64,000 nt of DNA, from assembly GCF_035818615.1 (NCBI RefSeq), contig NZ_JAYKZY010000002.1, positions 1,490,501 through 1,554,500 of the forward strand, in the 5' to 3' direction. The notes under the pieces are model-generated. The model worked only from the letters and a program-made list of their open reading frames with translations. It was not told the DNA's origin and did not search any database. Positions 4,405-12,411 of this stretch are shown piece by piece. The translations under genes and the position numbers were made by a program. Position 1 is the stretch's first letter. Each line of letters starts with the position of its first letter. Source of the stretch: Sphingobium sp. CR2-8 (GTDB taxonomy: Bacteria; Pseudomonadota; Alphaproteobacteria; Sphingomonadales; Sphingomonadaceae).

Positions 4405-4635
4405 ATGCGGGACTGGGCCACTGCACGCCGTGAACGCACGCGGCATTTGATCGAACTGGGCGGCCTCGTCATCAAGGCCGGGCTAGTCGATCTGACCGAC
4501 GATGATCGGGCCGCGCTCTACGGCGCGTTCCTCACCGTTGCCGACAGACTGCGCGGCGAGGAACGCGCCAACGCACTTGCCCTCTGGAAGCGCAAAGGCA
4601 AGCGAGCCTTCGAGGCGGAACAGGGCGGCGGTTAG
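4405..4635 (+). CDS. traD: Conjugal transfer protein TraD
   Basis: The 76-residue protein carries the segment LIELGGLVIKAGLVDL at about residues 13-28, the hallmark of the small TraD family (PF06412-type) found next to TraC and the relaxase in Ti-like systems. Its presumed role is as a relaxosome accessory DNA-binding protein; that is family knowledge, not visible here. It follows the TraC-like gene by 22 bases and ends 4 bases inside the convergent HEPN-fusion gene. Confidence 0.78.
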   Translation: MRDWATARRERTRHLIELGGLVIKAGLVDLTDDDRAALYGAFLTVADRLRGEERANALALWKRKGKRAFEAEQGGG

Positions 4636-6145
4636 CGCGATACTGACAAGCGCACATTGCCGTCCGGTTCTGCCTGATACTCGACCACCGCCGCAATCGG
4701 TGGGCTGCTCTTGTCGCAATAGCGCACGGTGATGAAGTCTTCTCGGATCGCAGGGCACAGGCCGGAGCCATAGAGAATGTCCGCCAGCGCGTCGAAGGTC
4801 GTCGCCTTGGCGCGATAGGCCCCGGTCCACCGCACCGCCCAAATGTCGTCATTGGCCTTGACCCGGTATCCCGCCCTTTGCGCAACGTCCATGACCGCGC
4901 CCAGCACCGTGTCCGCGCGCACGTCGAAGTCCAGCACGGCTGAGAGGTCAGCCGGTTCGGAACGGACGGCCTGCGCGGACTTTACCCGCCATAGCGTTGC
5001 CTCGGCACCCGCCATGAAGAAGCACAGGCAGACAATCGCCAAGGGCAGATGGTCAACCCAATCGATGAACCTTTCGGAGCGCCAGAATTGGCGAAGCGGA
5101 ATGAGCGGATTCCATCGGCCCTCTCGTGGGCCAACTCGTCGCAAGATCCGCCATGTCCGTCGCAGCATATTGGCGCGGCGCACGGGCCGGGAAAGCGTTA
5201 GCGCTGTTGTCGGCTCTGTGGGCGGCGTAAGCATTTGCGCTGGCAGGCTTGCAGCGAGCGAAGCCTGATGATCCGCGCAGGCGAACGCTGCCCGTACCTG
5301 CAATATCTCCACTCGCGCGAACGCCCATGCCAGTTCCTCACCCGAAATGCGGTAGGATCGCCCATAGCGCGCTTCGACATAGGCGCGGCGGATGCAGCCG
5401 AACGCGCGGCGCTCGAACCGGCTATCGCGCGGCCATGCTGAACACAGGCGCGGGTCCAGCGCCTCCGCCGCCTCGCGCAGTTCATCGAGCGCATGGGTGC
5501 GCGGTGCGTGTAGGCTGATCGACCGCAAAACGCACAGATAGAAATGCTCGCACGCCTGATGCAACATCAGCGCCGCCATCGGGGCATCGCCCCGGTTGCG
5601 ATAGAAAGCCGCGCCTGCCAGAAATCCGGTTCCGCGATTATGCCACCGGATAAACTCCGCTGCACCCCGAATAGCCCGTTCCCGCACCGGAAGGCGGCGC
5701 GGCTCACTCAGCCGCAATCCCTCCATCTGGTAAAGCGCGATTCCCCGTTCGGCGATGGTGACGAAATGAGGGACGCCTTCGACAAGAGAGCCGTTGACCC
5801 GGTCAAGGCTTTCGACCGCCAACCGAACCGGGCGGGTAATTTCGCCATTCTCCCATGCGCGGCGCAGTCGGTCGCGCACCAGCCTCCAGTCGCCTTCGCT
5901 GCGGGCAAGGCGCGGATAGTTGACGATCGCGAGCAGGCGGAACGCTTCCCCGGCGCGACCTCTTCCCAATCCTTCTCGGCATGGGGGCCGTGCAGGATCA
6001 GGGTGAGAATGCGGCCCGCCCGGAAATGTTCAGAGCATCGGCCCTTGGTCGTTTCCTCGAACGCCTCGAACAGGATCATGGTGACGTGAAGAAGCTCCTC
6101 GCGGATCGACGCGGGCAGATGGTCGGCATCGGTACGCAGCATCAT
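4632..6145 (-). CDS. Degenerate nucleotidyltransferase-HEPN-transmembrane-STN fusion protein (one frameshift)
   Basis: Reading from ATG 6145, the first 60 codons match the N-terminus of nucleotidyltransferase-HEPN proteins (MMLRTDADHLPASIREEL, then LILHGPHAEKDWEE). The frame then changes at a G run (5948-5951, CCCC on the plus strand) into a long open frame of about 440 codons ending at 4632. That part contains the rest of the nucleotidyltransferase fold, a HEPN domain (LMLHQACEHFYLCVLRSISL and RTHALDEL), one transmembrane helix (LPLAIVCLCFFMAG) and a C-terminal STN-like domain (FDVRADTVLGAVMDVAQRAG). The catalytic GS becomes GP and the Asp pair of the nucleotidyltransferase is absent, so that domain is probably inactive. 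The ATG overlaps the stop of the upstream gene as ATGA, indicating translational coupling. Adding one G restores a continuous frame; without it only a TTG start at 5969 remains. Confidence 0.75.
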
Positions 6146-6756
6146 GACCGCGCCTCCTGCGAGCGACGCTGGCAACCCTTCGGGCGCGGGTGGCCGGTCA
6201 CGTCATGGACGCGATCCACCAAGGCACGCACAAGGGGCGTAATCGAGGCGGGAATGAAGCCGCCCGTGCGGGGCCGGTCTTCTTCCCAATCATGATAATG
6301 ATAGCCCCACTTCCAATAGGGCGACAGAACCGCCGCCAGCCGCGCCATGTCGGGGCAATCATGCCCAAAGCCGCAGGCATTGGCATAGGCCAACCCCTTG
6401 GCGATGTCTTGCTTGATGTGGCGGGCGTTCCACGCATCGGCAAAGCCCATGTCGAGCAGATAGGCACACAGGGCCTGCTGGGTCACGAAACCGGCCTGAT
6501 GCAGCGCTTCTCGTGCAAATCGCGGCTCAGTGAGGAAATCCGCTTCCAGCGTTGTCATCCACCGTTCCGCATTGTGATAGCGGAAGCGGCTTATGCTTCG
6601 CCCCTCTTTCGTCCGAACAAGTGTCGCGGGTTCATCCTCGTAGCGTTGATGAAGCGCCCCCAGTGCGCCCTCCCAGGGCGAGGCAATTGCCGATGCGGCA
6701 ACCGGCGCAATGGTCAGTGCGCGCAGCAGGGCGCGGCGGGATTTGGAGACAAGCAT
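6142..6756 (-). CDS. Tat-exported protein of unknown function
   Basis: From ATG 6756 the protein is 204 residues and begins with a twin-arginine type signal (SRRALLRAL) followed by a hydrophobic alanine-rich stretch and a likely cleavage site after ASAIA near residue 24. The mature part is globular, rich in Trp, Tyr and His, with an unusual WKWGYHYHDWEEDRP segment and three cysteines. I do not recognise a family. An in-frame ATG further upstream exists, but it lies inside the operator palindrome at 6884-6922 and is unlikely to be used. Its stop overlaps the ATG of the HEPN-STN gene, so the two are translationally coupled. That suggests a periplasmic partner of the STN domain, which is inference. 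Confidence 0.6.
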   Translation of the reverse strand: MLVSKSRRALLRALTIAPVAASAIASPWEGALGALHQRYEDEPATLVRTKEGRSISRFRYHNAERWMTTLEADFLTEPRFAREALHQAGFVTQQALCAYLLDMGFADAWNARHIKQDIAKGLAYANACGFGHDCPDMARLAAVLSPYWKWGYHYHDWEEDRPRTGGFIPASITPLVRALVDRVHDVTGHPRPKGCQRRSQEARS

Positions 6757-6883
6757 ATGCACCTCCGTTCCGCATCCATCGCAAGGGAGTGAGATATGAC
6801 GGCGGATACGGAACGGGCCCGGCACTCCCACATGATTCGCGATGCCGGTCGCGCAATAGCCCTCCGAGAAAGGCCGTCGCGGC

Positions 6884-6940
6884 ATATACGCCATCGTTTA
6901 ATCAATAAACGGTGGCGTATATTCAAGTAAACGGTGGCGT
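6884..6940. promoter_or_regulatory. Operator array: 17-bp near-perfect palindrome plus a third half-site
   Basis: ATATACGCCATCGTTTA (6884-6900) and TAAACGGTGGCGTATAT (6906-6922) are inverted copies with one mismatch and a 5-base loop. A third copy, TAAACGGTGGCGT (6928-6940), follows 22 bases after the second, two helical turns away. A weaker half-site CGGTGGCGTAT lies at 7245-7255. The array sits between the Tat-protein/HEPN operon and the ribbon-helix-helix gene, as expected for an autoregulatory operator. The binding protein is inferred, not shown. Confidence 0.65.
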
Positions 6941-7169: not shown

Positions 7170-7542
7170 ACGAAAACAGTTCGGCTGCGGCGATTGTCGG
7201 ACGCCTGGCCGATCCGACGGTGATTGATTGTTGAGCGCGGCCTGCGGTGGCGTATCCACACGATGCCGATTTTCCCAGCATCAGCGCCAGAGTGCGCGGC
7301 TAGCGACTGAAATTATGGTTTTCGATTGTCGAGTTTGCGCCATTGTCGGTCATTCTAAGCGGGGATCTTTGGCCCCCTAACCGGCCTTAATTTCATTCAG
7401 TGCGCGACCGATAAATTGGACAATAGGAAAGGATACTTGGCGCCTTTCATGTCTACCGTACCGTATTGCCACCGCTAGTGTGCTTTTAGGCTTGGCTCAA
7501 CCGAGAGGTGTGATAGCTAAAGCCCACAAACGGGAGAAGAGC
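7170..7542. other. Intergenic region with no supported gene
   Basis: This 373-base stretch separates the ribbon-helix-helix gene from the AIPR gene. It contains TTCGGCT...TTGTCGGAC at 7180-7202, which is inverted relative to bases 1-20. It also has a further half-operator at 7245-7255 and three copies of ATTGTCG (in 7191-7200, 7323-7330 and about 7345). No open frame with a plausible start is visible. It presumably holds the AIPR promoter, but no convincing -35/-10 pair is evident. Confidence 0.5.
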
Positions 7543-9279
7543 GTGAATCCGGTCATTAAAGCGCAGGTACTCGACTTTGCCGCGACGGAAGACATCGAGC
7601 ACCGCGCTGAAAGCGAGATATTTGAGATATACTCAGTATACTCGATTTTGAACGGTGGATTGGGCGAGAGCGTAGACGCGGCCGATGTCCACCTGTCTGG
7701 CAATGAGTTTGGCGTTGATGGTGTAGCGATCATAGTCCAGGGTAGATTAGTTGCCGATACGACAGATGCTGAACAGGCAATACAAGATATCAAAAATCCA
7801 GAAATCGACTTCTACTTCTTTCAATCGAAAACCGGAACGTCCTTTGATTATGGCGATATATCAAAATTCTTTGATTCGATCAGTGGATTTTTTGATGGCA
7901 GCATGAATGGCGAGAGCCCGCAGCTTGATGATTTGATCGCTGCCAAGGACGTTCTTTACAGTAAAGGCGTGGGTCGGCGAAACCCGGGATTGCACGCGTA
8001 TTACGCTTGCACCGGAAATTACGATAAGCCGTCTCGCATAGAGAAGCTGATTGTAAGCGCCCAAAGTCAATGGTCAGATCTCAACATATTCGATCAGGAT
8101 CGAACCTCAATCCAAATGATCGGTGCGAAAGAACTGCAGCGCCTTTATCGTGCGGCGTCAAGCGCCGTTGAAGCAACGATTGAGTTCCCTCGAAATGTGG
8201 TGCTGCCAAGCCATGGGAGCGTAGAAGAAGCTTATCTCGGATATATCACCGCTGACGAGGTCGTAAAGCTCGTCTCAATTAGAGACGATGATGGCAATCC
8301 GCAGGACATTAATCGATCAGTTTTTTTCGATAATATTCGGGATTTTGATCCAGATTCCAAAATAAATAATGATATTGCGGACACCCTTCAAAGAGGCGAG
8401 GCCCCCGACTTCATTTTTCGCAACAATGGTATTACCGTTGTTGCAAAGTCTATAGATCGGACTGGCGACAGATTTCGGATCGAGGACTATCAGGTAGTAA
8501 ACGGCTGTCAGACAAGTAATATTCTCTTCAACAATAGAACGGCAGTAGCCAGTGTCCATGTTCCTTTCCGGTTGATTGGCACGAAGGACGATGATTTCAT
8601 TTCCTCTATCATCGCAGGGACTAACCGTCAAAACGCCGTTCGCGAAGAGCAATTCTGGGCTCTGCGGCCTTTCATGAAAAGCTTCGAGGAGTACTGCCAG
8701 TCCCTTGACGACGAACAGCGTATTCTTTTTGAACGACGAGAAAATCAGTTTCGTGGGCAGAAGGTTGAGAGAGCACGTATCATGCAGCCCTCGACGCTGA
8801 TGAAAGCGGTAGCCGCAACTTTGCTAAATCAGCCAAATCGCTCTGCGCGAGACTACCGTGGCATAACAGCTGAATATCAGGACAAATTGTTCCTCGAAGA
8901 GCACGATGTTCGGCTCTATCATGCGGCCTGCTATCTGCATTATCGTCTCGACTATCTGTGGAGAAATCAAAAACTCGACAAAGATTTTAAGATATATCGC
9001 TTCTATTTCATGGCTGCTATTGGCAGAAAGATTATCGGAAATGGCGATGTTTTTGCAAGGAGACGTCAGGACATACAGGCGATATCCGCCAAGATAGTTG
9101 ATTTAGCAGCCGATGAAGCTCGTTTGAAGGCGACGGTCGAGAAAACGCACGACCTTCTTAAGGCGCGGATCGCTGCAGCGGATACAGGCACTAGAGAGAG
9201 ACTTCGTGATGCCATCCGGTCCGAGACGTTCGCTAAGGCTTTTGATCGAGACTTAGCGAATGAAACGATCCCTCTTTAG
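7543..9279 (+). CDS. AIPR family protein (abortive-infection type, possible PD-(D/E)XK nuclease)
   Basis: The start is the GTG at 7543, preceded by GGAGAAG; the protein is then 578 residues. The first 110 residues include NEFGVDGVAIIV and, after about 30 residues, FYFFQSKTG. Together these form an Asp...Gln-x-Lys pattern like Mrr-type PD-(D/E)XK nucleases. The central part (about residues 210-460) carries AIPR signatures: FFDNIRDF, FRNNGITVVAKSI and VVNGCQTSNILF. AIPR proteins were first linked to phage abortive infection. The gene is clearly richer in A and T than its neighbours and uses AGA and ATA codons freely, a sign of recent transfer. It stands alone with no evident partner. Confidence 0.85.
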   Translation: MNPVIKAQVLDFAATEDIEHRAESEIFEIYSVYSILNGGLGESVDAADVHLSGNEFGVDGVAIIVQGRLVADTTDAEQAIQDIKNPEIDFYFFQSKTGTSFDYGDISKFFDSISGFFDGSMNGESPQLDDLIAAKDVLYSKGVGRRNPGLHAYYACTGNYDKPSRIEKLIVSAQSQWSDLNIFDQDRTSIQMIGAKELQRLYRAASSAVEATIEFPRNVVLPSHGSVEEAYLGYITADEVVKLVSIRDDDGNPQDINRSVFFDNIRDFDPDSKINNDIADTLQRGEAPDFIFRNNGITVVAKSIDRTGDRFRIEDYQVVNGCQTSNILFNNRTAVASVHVPFRLIGTKDDDFISSIIAGTNRQNAVREEQFWALRPFMKSFEEYCQSLDDEQRILFERRENQFRGQKVERARIMQPSTLMKAVAATLLNQPNRSARDYRGITAEYQDKLFLEEHDVRLYHAACYLHYRLDYLWRNQKLDKDFKIYRFYFMAAIGRKIIGNGDVFARRRQDIQAISAKIVDLAADEARLKATVEKTHDLLKARIAAADTGTRERLRDAIRSETFAKAFDRDLANETIPL

Positions 9280-9516: not shown

Positions 9517-9849
9517 CTACGCGACCGCCTGCAAACCCTTGCGCTGGATGATCGACAGAAGGCGCAGGGCAGGGCCGCCGGGTCGCTTAACGCCTCGTTC
9601 CCAATCCGACACGAGATTGCGCGAGACATTGAGATAGGCGGCGAACACAGGCTGCGAGACATGCTCGCGCTCGCGGATTGCCCGAATTTCATCGCCTGCC
9701 AGCGTGGGGGCGGGGGCGAGGCACGCTTCATCGAATGTACGCAACGTCGCGCGCGACACCACGCCCGCGTCGTAAGCGTCGCTCATCATTTCATGGATCG
9801 CGCCCGCAATCTCACTGCGATAGCCCTTATCCTTCATCACGGTTCTCAT
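9517..9849 (-). CDS. Xre-family antitoxin (HigA/NadS-like) of a type II toxin-antitoxin pair
   Basis: The 110-residue protein has a C-terminal helix-turn-helix (EIRAIREREHVSQPVFAAYL, then NVSRNLVSDWERGVKRPGG) typical of Xre-like antitoxins. The N-terminal 40 residues should bind the toxin. It overlaps the upstream RelE-like gene by 23 bases, a toxin-first order as in higBA. A second in-frame ATG at 9837 is also possible. The last 75 residues closely resemble the truncated antitoxin at 19053-19280 in the radC island, so the two islands share a source for this module. Confidence 0.8.
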   Translation of the reverse strand: MRTVMKDKGYRSEIAGAIHEMMSDAYDAGVVSRATLRTFDEACLAPAPTLAGDEIRAIREREHVSQPVFAAYLNVSRNLVSDWERGVKRPGGPALRLLSIIQRKGLQAVA

Positions 9850-10216
9850 CGTCTATCTCCACCAACGTTCCCGTCGCCACCAGTCGGTCCAATTCCCCGG
9901 CGCTCCACTCCAGCGCCTCGCTCGCCGAGTTACGGAGCAGGGCCAGGTCCGCCTTTGTTATGTTCGCCTGCGCACTTTTGGCGAACCCGAAAGCGAATAT
10001 CGCCCTGTCACCCTGCCGGAACAGGATCAGCGTGCGATAGCCGCCCGACTTGCCTTGCCCGGTGCGCGCGACCCGCTGCTTGATGACACCGCCGCCAAGA
10101 TCGGCATCCACCAGACCGCTTTCTGCGCGCTCCACGGCTTCAACAAGCGAGGCATCAGCAATCCGCTCTTTTCGCGCGAAGCGCTCGAACCAACCATTTT
10201 TTAAGATGCGCGCGAT
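9827..10216 (-). CDS. RelE/HigB-like toxin of a type II toxin-antitoxin pair
   Basis: The core ARILKNGWFERFARKE, the segment GGGVIKQRVAR and the segment GYRTLILFRQGDRAIF are typical of RelE/ParE-superfamily toxins. Family members usually start at the codon that here reads ATC (10216-10214). An AGGAGA (10223-10228 on the plus strand, read in reverse) sits exactly 6 bases upstream of it. The only conventional start in frame is the GTG at 10252, ahead of that ribosome site. The start is therefore either a rare ATC, a mutated ATG, or the GTG with a 12-residue extension. The reading frame is otherwise intact at about 129 residues and overlaps the antitoxin. Confidence 0.75.
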   Translation of the reverse strand: MARILKNGWFERFARKERIADASLVEAVERAESGLVDADLGGGVIKQRVARTGQGKSGGYRTLILFRQGDRAIFAFGFAKSAQANITKADLALLRNSASEALEWSAGELDRLVATGTLVEIDDENRDEG

Positions 10217-10674
10217 GGCGGTTCTCCTGCTCTCTGTGGCTCTATATAACACTTAGCGTTATAGTTCAATATGGATGGGAAGGAACGACACGACATCGGC
10301 CTTCTTGACAGCGCATAGGCTGCGGGTGAGCATGAGTTTGCTTCATGACGCTGAGAAGGTGGTCCTTTCAAAGGAGCCTCCAATGAACAACTCGACCTAA
10401 CGCCTGCTGGCTGTCCCTGAGACGGGGCGGATGAGAAGGCTTGGCATGAAACTTTGGTACAGGCTGGGAAAAAATCTTCGCTGATCGCTATCAGTGAGAA
10501 GCCTACGCCAAATTCCGCCGTCTTCCGCCGCTGACCGCCAATTGCCGCCAGCGTTCACCGACCCATGAAAGCTTAGCTGCCTACGCGCCCGGAACACTCT
10601 TGTCCGGCACGGCAAGGCATCCAATGCTCGTGGTCGGGGGCGCGTGCAACATCCTGATTTGAAGAGACTGCCCC
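10217..10674. other. Intergenic region with a phased CGCC array and a broken leader frame
   Basis: No intact gene is seen in these 458 bases. A good ribosome site (AAAGGAG, 10370-10376) precedes ATG 10383, but the frame stops after five codons. Past that stop the frame reads RLLAVPETGRM, which resembles the start of excisionase-type helix-turn-helix proteins, so this may be a dead regulator gene. At 10506-10549 CGCC recurs five times at exactly 10-base intervals, listed separately. Confidence 0.5.
10506..10559. repeat. Five CGCC half-sites phased at 10 bp (plus one CACC)
   Basis: CGCC occurs at 10506, 10516, 10526, 10536 and 10546, with CACC at 10556, so the same face of the helix is marked for five turns. 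The six-base spacers differ, so this is a site array rather than a duplicated sequence. It lies about 120 bases upstream of the AlpA-like regulator gene. It could be an operator or a recombination accessory site, which is inference. Confidence 0.55.
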
Positions 10675-12336: not shown

Positions 12337-12411
12337 TGGTGACCCCTACGGGAATCGAACCCGTGCTTCAGCCGTGAGAGGGCCGCGTCCTAACCGCTAG
12401 ACGAAGGGGCC
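12337..12411 (-). tRNA. tRNA-Glu (anticodon CTC)
   Basis: Read on the minus strand, the acceptor GGCCCCT pairs with AGGGGTC (one G-U), followed by a discriminator A and an encoded CCA (12337-12339). The T loop is GGTTCGATTCC and the D arm contains AGCGGTTAGGAC. The anticodon loop CCTCTCACG gives CTC, decoding GAG. The integrase lies on its 3' side, so this gene is the attachment site of the upstream element, and the tRNA itself remains intact. Confidence 0.93.

What the first reader, a model, noticed from the sequence alone, without database searches (positions are those of the whole stretch)
4632..6145. Membrane HEPN protein with a periplasmic STN domain and a dead nucleotidyltransferase
The fusion joins a nucleotidyltransferase-HEPN module, usually a soluble defence or toxin-type RNase, to a transmembrane helix and an STN domain, normally found in TonB receptors and secretins as a periplasmic signal receiver. 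The nucleotidyltransferase active site is lost (GS to GP, Asp pair absent). This would be a one-protein transmembrane sensor with a cytoplasmic RNase-like head. I know of no described system built this way.
Basis: partly seen in the sequence, partly recalled or inferred. Interest (0 to 1): 0.75.

Follow-up and report, generated by a model that had tools for sequence, protein, structure and literature searches.

The report
Membrane-anchored relative of relaxase-recruiting protein VBP
A mobile DNA element of soil bacteria carries a protein that looks like a known escort for DNA about to be passed between cells, but here tied to the inner membrane with a sensor-like knob outside, a build that I did not find described.

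Summary
The architecture is real. Window 4632-6145 (-) encodes a degenerate nucleotidyltransferase, a HEPN domain, a hydrophobic helix and an STN domain. The window copy is frame-shifted, but 26 of 28 named loci carry it intact. STN is supported by profile comparison (97%; score 58, against at most 17.6 in 200 permutations) and is the most constrained part (dN/dS 0.11).

The RNase-sensor reading is not supported. The HEPN lacks a conserved RNase motif, and its best solved relative is 4NQF, the HEPN of Agrobacterium VBP, which escorts relaxase-DNA to a type IV secretion system. Tail-less relatives lie beside traA in 5 of 8 plasmid regions viewed. The gene belongs to an integrative element with TraA, two TraD-family proteins and an integrase, at tRNA-Glu, without its own coupling protein in this genome.

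Best reading: a membrane-anchored VBP-like docking protein whose STN touches a helper secretion system or other envelope partner (inferred). In the same element backbone, tail-less versions carry a sigma-region-4-like gene instead, so FecR-like signalling is a live rival. New variant of a known kind.

The parts
4632..6145 (-). gene of degenerate NT + HEPN + TM helix + STN (VBP-like); frame-shifted in this copy
   Evidence: intact in 26 of 28 named loci
5646..6145 (-). degenerate nucleotidyltransferase region (in two frames here)
   Evidence: motif lost in 27 of 27 tail-bearing rows
5334..5645 (-). HEPN domain, related to VBP HEPN 4NQF
   Evidence: PF05168 24.2 bits; phmmer 1.1e-16 to 4nqf; Foldseek E 2.8e-9, TMt 0.95 on the intact relative L047
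4992..5048 (-). predicted transmembrane helix
   Evidence: hydropathy and charge in relatives; long helix 358-391 in the L047 model
4716..4940 (-). STN domain, with two conserved Cys (codons about 4755-4757 and 4716-4718)
   Evidence: low-confidence model
6142..6894 (-). upstream SRR gene; its stop overlaps the start of the VBP-like gene (ATGA)
   Evidence: found directly upstream in 27 of 28 rows
4405..4635 (+). TraD-family gene, convergent with the VBP-like gene
   Evidence: PF06412 81.6 bits
4023..4382 (+). second TraD-family gene, in the traC position
   Evidence: PF06412 59.7 bits
910..3903 (-). TraA-type relaxase-helicase
   Evidence: PF03389 235 bits, PF13604 191 bits
133..891 (-). DUF6118 gene
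   Evidence: PF19613 74.8 bits
10938..12173 (-). tyrosine integrase of the element
   Evidence: PF00589, PF13356, PF22022
12325..12352 (.). att-like 28-bp direct repeat at the 3' end of tRNA-Glu (12337-12411); second copy about 27.6 kb to the left, outside the window

Best explanation
The gene is a mobilisation gene of an integrative element. SHOWN by sequence: it belongs to the NT-HEPN family that includes the Agrobacterium relaxase-recruiting protein VBP; it forms a clade that lost the NT active site; most sampled members of that clade carry a membrane helix and a periplasmic-type STN domain; the STN part is under strong purifying selection; in 24 of 28 rows the TraA gene lies within 3.5 kb downstream in the same direction; the window's element has no type IV coupling protein or TrbI/VirB10 of its own. 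INFERRED: the HEPN head dimerises and binds the TraA-DNA complex as VBP binds VirD2-DNA. The helix fixes it at the inner membrane, and the periplasmic STN/N0-type knob, probably with a disulphide, binds an envelope partner, most likely the outer part of a helper type IV secretion system, where N0 folds are known. It would thus act as a ready-made docking station that lets an element without coupling protein or channel hand its DNA to a resident one; fixed docking may be why the ATP-using NT part could decay.
For: HEPN to 4NQF: phmmer 1.1e-16, Foldseek E 2.8e-9 with TMt 0.95; 4NQF is VBP HEPN, and VBP recruits VirD2-T-DNA to VirD4 and interacts with VirB4 and VirB11. Of 8 annotated plasmid regions with tail-less relatives, 5 hold traA within the flank viewed: pUT1 (TraA, TraD, VBP-like, SIMPL, TraG), pCFD-2-5, pAt3, pASDW145_1, pVL1_4; a sixth, pP6W1, has TraG-N/TraH genes nearby. 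Conserved cassette. STN; selection. No T4CP or TrbI inside the element: own-genome matches only at C2:73859 and C3:4 (T4CP) and C2:37323, C3:2542, C1:715625, C2:3425429 (TrbI), the element being about C2:1475257-1502852. No TraG homologue at 1e-5 in the DNA held for L036-L063, window, L094, L095 (the flanks do not cover whole elements; the pUT1 query does find the own T4CP region). The tail model resembles secretin N0, XacVirB7, DotD and FecA/PupA/FpvA domains. A VirB7 with an N0 domain in a T4SS core complex is published (abstract).
Against: VBP binds ATP and VBP1 is reported as an NTPase, but the active site is lost here. VBP dimer residues Asp173/Lys184/Asn186 align, by my reading, to Gly/Arg/Asp in L047 and the window, though to Asp/Gln/Asn in L036 and Asp/Arg/Asn in L060. 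Four clade members (pTK2, pJE1, L149, L153) lack the tail and carry a sigma-region-4-like gene instead, so the tail is not needed by the whole clade. The helix is borderline in 5 of 27 rows. Both structure models are weak in the tail (pLDDT mostly under 50, mean 54), and no PDB match of the tail model reaches E 0.001. No direct evidence of binding to TraA or to a T4SS. In pTK2 and pJE1 no tra gene is annotated within the 12 and 8 kb flanks seen. L036, L044, L053 and L058 do not have TraA within 3.5 kb in the same direction (L053 ends with its contig, L036 has it about 4 kb away).
Confidence: 0.45

Rival explanations
1. FecR-like transenvelope signalling: the STN domain receives a signal in the periplasm (a TonB receptor or envelope state), and the NT-HEPN head controls transcription of transfer genes, replacing or controlling a sigma-region-4-like partner.
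For: STN is the shared domain of TonB-receptor/FecR surface signalling (recalled); the tail profile's best matches outside its own family in 298 genomes are TonB-receptor STNs, and PupR is among the fold matches. In the same TraC/TraA/DUF6118 backbone (L157: TraA 89%, L158: 72%) one finds, 3-4 kb from TraC, a long NT-like/SRR-like gene + tail-less VBP-like gene + sigma-like HTH gene in place of SRR + VBP-STN; two Sigma70_r4_2 stretches, 61.5 bits, in L157; pTK2 33.8 bits. Weak sigma-4 stretches also in the gene upstream of L044 (17.5 bits) and in L157's first gene (18.1 bits), both under the cut-off of 25.7.
Against: The tail-bearing cassettes showed no gene conserved beside them other than SRR, the tra genes, DUF6118 and integrases among the large clusters. 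NT-HEPN is not a known anti-sigma head (recalled). The sigma-like gene goes with tail-less, not tail-bearing, proteins in the four cases seen.
Confidence: 0.25
2. Envelope-side control between elements: the STN knob binds the secretion channel to hinder competing elements or re-entry (exclusion or fertility inhibition).
For: Several elements of the kind share a genome: two copies in G000 and G287, two STN loci in Leaf26.
Against: No specific sequence evidence; the STN part is strongly conserved rather than diversifying.
Confidence: 0.1
3. Defence or toxin protein: a membrane sensor with a HEPN RNase head.
For: HEPN fold; membrane HEPN proteins with proposed RNA-cutting roles are described; defence-like cargo nearby; tail-less L003 matches candidate-defence model PDC-S09, 29.7 bits; RSISLH at residue 208 in 12 of 26 rows fits the bare Rx4-6H pattern.
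Against: No Rx4-6H near the last HEPN helices in tail-bearing rows; the match at 208 is not conserved; no PADLOC match for L047; nearest solved relative is VBP; conserved with relaxase genes.
Confidence: 0.07

Closest known systems
VBP1-3 (VirD2-binding, T-complex recruiting proteins) of Agrobacterium
   Same: NT_KNTase-like + HEPN order; HEPN related to 4NQF; relatives of the family sit in conjugation clusters
   Different: Described as a cytoplasmic ATP-binding protein; here the NT motif is lost and a helix plus STN are added
FecR/PupR anti-sigma regulators and FecA-type receptors
   Same: FecR: cytoplasmic head, one helix, periplasmic STN (recalled); tail homologous to TonB-receptor STN
   Different: head is NT-HEPN, not an anti-sigma domain; no receptor or sigma gene among the large conserved clusters beside it
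Xanthomonas VirB7 and DotD (N0 domains in T4SS core complexes)
   Same: N0/STN-like fold in a type IV secretion setting
   Different: those are core-complex components (abstract of PMC3093366; DotD listing); here the fold is on an inner-membrane recruiting-type protein; the fold match rests on a low-confidence model
Membrane HEPN proteins of Anantharaman et al. 2013 (PMC3710099)
   Same: HEPN joined to TM segments, predicted cytoplasmic
   Different: three other groups (WP-signature TM/DUF4145, Abi2/SWT1, Zn-ribbon); 'STN' and 'VirD2' do not occur in the main text

Membership tests
VBP-like NT-HEPN recruiting proteins | NT-like domain followed by HEPN of the 4NQF type | tested here: met
VBP-like NT-HEPN recruiting proteins | linkage to relaxase/conjugation genes | tested here: met
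   TraA within 3.5 kb downstream in 24 of 28 rows; 5 of 8 plasmid regions of tail-less relatives
VBP-like NT-HEPN recruiting proteins | nucleotide-binding NT active site (VBP binds ATP) | tested here: not met
   motif in 0 of 27 tail-bearing rows; so it is called VBP-like, not a VBP
VBP-like NT-HEPN recruiting proteins | dimer residues Asp173, Lys184, Asn186 | tested here: inconclusive
   kept in part in some rows, changed in L047 and the window
VBP-like NT-HEPN recruiting proteins | binds relaxase and coupling protein | not testable with these tools
   needs a pull-down or two-hybrid test
STN/N0 domain | sequence homology to STN of TonB receptors | tested here: met
   hhalign 97.1%, score 58.0 against at most 17.6 in 200 permutations; the 7 template proteins all match PF07660, two of them below the curated cut-off
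STN/N0 domain | Pfam STN model finds it directly | tested here: not met
   no PF07660 row at E up to 10 in three intact relatives
STN/N0 domain | beta-alpha-beta fold order | tested here: inconclusive
HEPN RNase (toxin/defence) | conserved Rx4-6H motif near the last HEPN helices (place recalled) | tested here: not met
   absent in that stretch of the tail-bearing rows; present there only in L017, L025, pCFD, pUT1; unconserved matches elsewhere
MNT-HEPN toxin-antitoxin | separate MNT and HEPN genes with an intact MNT active site (recalled) | tested here: not met
   one polypeptide, motif lost
FecR-type anti-sigma regulator | N-terminal anti-sigma domain (recalled) | tested here: not met
   head is NT-HEPN

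The most novel reading that the evidence does not exclude
Signal-gated mobilisation: the STN knob reads the state of the envelope or of a helper secretion channel and switches the VBP-like head between holding and releasing the relaxase-DNA complex, so that the element moves only when a channel is ready; in sister elements a sigma-region-4-like protein does the equivalent job by transcription.
Probability: 0.25. Interest if true: 0.8.

Novelty: new variant of a known kind. Interest (0 to 1): 0.58.

Why it matters
How mobilisable elements without coupling protein or channel hand their DNA to a host cell's secretion system is poorly known (my own judgement). A recruiting-type protein fused to a membrane anchor and a periplasmic STN would be a direct, testable link between the relaxosome and the outer part of the envelope machine. 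The swap between a TM-STN tail and a sigma-like gene in one element backbone gives a natural experiment on what that link does.

Tried and rejected
Rejected: (1) RNase sensor: no conserved motif and best relative VBP. (2) Random C-termini: refuted by conservation. (3) Programmed frameshift: 26 of 28 relatives read in one frame, so the break is damage or a sequencing error; which one I cannot tell. (4) SRR gene as a Tat-exported periplasmic partner: SRRx[LI]L is kept in the 26 rows aligned (25 loci and the window), but its C-terminal part also ends long NT-like proteins (45.3 bits), which look cytoplasmic, so I do not rely on it. (5) A separate STN gene beside the G287 copy (L097:8821-9297): no convincing match to either profile.

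Led nowhere or weak: the tail profile against PDB sequences gave no STN, only three chance-like rows; the plasmid search with the tail found one partial record. Several weak targets of the tail profile do not read as STN by their letters (L074, L078, L080, L081, L084, L086). A first profile comparison that still held L080 and L081 gave 95.6%; the 7-row template leaves them out. Its rows were first picked by the tail profile and then checked by Pfam, so the choice was not blind. Tree: tail-bearing rows are not one clade in the 59-row tree (2 changes); with L149 and L153 added, the tail-less sigma-type rows form one side of a branch (87/80), so one gain and one loss is simplest but not proven. 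That second tree used 41 rows: 39 of the 59 and two new ones. L021 and L027 dropped out before the first tree (no frame found by my pattern); L020, L028, L034, the intact L007, L002 and the window piece were not given to it. One search scored at most 5 candidates a genome and its match list is cut; one search listed 60 of 364 records. Motif, tree, hydropathy and selection counts use one script run each.

Full report
WHAT IS THERE. The main ORF of the finding is 4632-5969 on the minus strand; the first ~65 residues lie in another frame up to the ATG at 6145. Pfam sees HEPN (24.2 bits, cut-off 22). Intact natural copies exist. One scan of genome contigs with the tail alignment gave 28 loci, of which 26 carry one uninterrupted frame giving 501-508 aa from the conserved start; L037 lacks the N-terminus and L056 is split. 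Two of the 26 (L041, L042) are the same in the tree. By record title 25 of 28 are Sphingobium, one Sphingomonas oleivorans, one Novosphingobium naphthalenivorans and one an unnamed bacterium.

HOW WIDESPREAD. In 298 genomes drawn from the family, 74 match the protein (at most 5 candidates a genome scored), in the rows listed nearly always only over NT-HEPN. The tail itself matches strongly (E below 1e-50) at 6 places in 4 of 298 genomes. In plasmids, 364 records match, none over 80% of the length; the tail alone gives one partial record.

THE TAIL IS STN. The tail profile finds TonB-receptor N-termini, the best ones without gaps. Of seven such proteins given to Pfam, all match STN, two below the cut-off, and five also match both Plug and barrel. 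Profile comparison with these seven gives 97.1%, score 58.0; 200 permuted tails reach at most 17.6 and the reversed tail 13.2. The same seven-row profile finds the tail in 26 of 26 intact proteins (32.6-41.9 bits for the domain). The tail-only model is weak (mean pLDDT 54), and no PDB match reaches E 0.001, but its order of strands and helices fits, and its matches are secretin N0 domains, FecA/PupA/FpvA/FoxA, PupR, DotD and XacVirB7, along with phage and injection-system baseplate proteins. Cys464 and Cys477 are invariant in 25 of 25 aligned full-length rows; with the fragments, one of 27 tails (L056) has lost the first. This suits a periplasmic disulphide (inference).

THE HEAD IS VBP-LIKE. 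The best solved relative by sequence and by fold is 4NQF, deposited as the HEPN domain of VBP. In the full-length model (mean pLDDT 63.6) the head is good and the tail poor. VBP is described as a cytoplasmic dimer that binds an ATP analogue, VirD2 and VirD4 and recruits VirD2-T-DNA to the secretion apparatus (PMC3953389: outline with abstract, passages, sections 11 and 14 seen). Three VBPs and NTPase activity of VBP1 are stated in PMC4667095 (passages seen). A review names Vbp1-3 as proposed to coordinate T-strand, coupling protein and channel (PMC3297438, passages).

NT LOSS. The motif is intact in 29 of 30 tail-less rows outside the clade (L017 is truncated), in none of the 27 tail-bearing rows, and not in pTK2 and pJE1. 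The clade of these 29 rows is supported 100/100.

THE ELEMENT. In the oriented loci the order is SRR gene, VBP-STN gene, then (opposite strand, seen in the window and L039) two TraD-family genes, TraA, DUF6118. TraA lies within 3.5 kb downstream in 24 of 28 rows (27 loci and the window; L037 not counted) and SRR directly upstream in 27 of 28. SRR stop and VBP-STN start overlap in the window. In this genome a 28-bp repeat at the 3' end of tRNA-Glu, next to the integrase, recurs about 27.6 kb away and marks the likely element ends. No coupling protein or TrbI lies inside; the genome has them elsewhere.

THE SWAP. On pTK2 and pJE1 and in L149 (within L158) and L153 (within L157) the same clade is tail-less and followed by a sigma-region-4-like gene (Pfam: 33.8 bits for pTK2; 61.5 bits for L157; L158 by tblastn with the pTK2 protein, 32% identity; pJE1 by its annotation and 88% identity). 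L157 and L158 have the same TraC-TraA-DUF6118 backbone (TraA 89% and 72%), with 3-4 kb of other genes between the module and TraC. So TM-STN and the sigma-like gene look like alternatives. This is the strongest point for a signalling role, and I keep that as the first rival.

SELECTION. Median dN/dS: STN 0.107, NT 0.149, HEPN 0.179, TM 0.282, linker 0.439, C-end 0.510, over 219 to 300 of 300 pairs per part, those with dS above 0.05 and not saturated.

LITERATURE. Searches for HEPN domain + STN domain, VirD2-binding protein + HEPN + transmembrane, STN domain + conjugative + type IV secretion and Sphingobium + integrative and mobilizable + relaxase each returned no paper in the held library; subscription papers are mostly missing. 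Searches gave listings, from which I opened five papers. The HEPN survey PMC3710099 describes other membrane HEPN proteins (passages, and section 15 read).

VERDICT. Architecture confirmed, RNase reading not supported; a membrane-anchored, STN-bearing relative of the VBP family in an integrative mobilisable element; mechanism inferred.

Noticed in passing
window 7480-9279 (+): AIPR/AbiU-like gene (PF10592 134 bits; PADLOC AbiU 341 bits) carried between integrase and the VBP-like module.
   Followed up: partly
window 9517-10252 (-): RelE toxin gene (157.5 bits) with an HTH antitoxin-like gene.
   Followed up: no
L002, L096 (own genome C2:832000-851000): Second copy of the module, 87% identical over residues 156-445, its 5' part replaced by a ParB-like ORF; a similar ParB-like ORF lies upstream of the sigma-type modules in L157 and L158.
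   Followed up: partly
L154, L006 (own genome C2:228500-234000): Third, decayed copy: SRR-like ORF next to a HEPN fragment with a stop.
   Followed up: no
L155 8907-13609 (own genome C2): A tail-less VBP-like gene in a region that also holds TrbI; its neighbours look like a FecI/FecR/TonB-receptor set by their letters (not Pfam-tested).
   Followed up: no
L044:7120-8361, L157:2726-4186, L158:2803-4284: Long upstream genes that join an NT-like part, a weak sigma-region-4 stretch and an SRR-like C-terminus.
   Followed up: partly
L130:6933-7649 and L129:6929-7201: SIMPL-domain gene and VbhA-family antitoxin gene directly after tail-less VBP-like genes on plasmids.
   Followed up: no
G287:C1:705248-707575: A split STN-type copy beside a tail-less NT-HEPN match in the same genome that also has an intact copy.
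   Followed up: no
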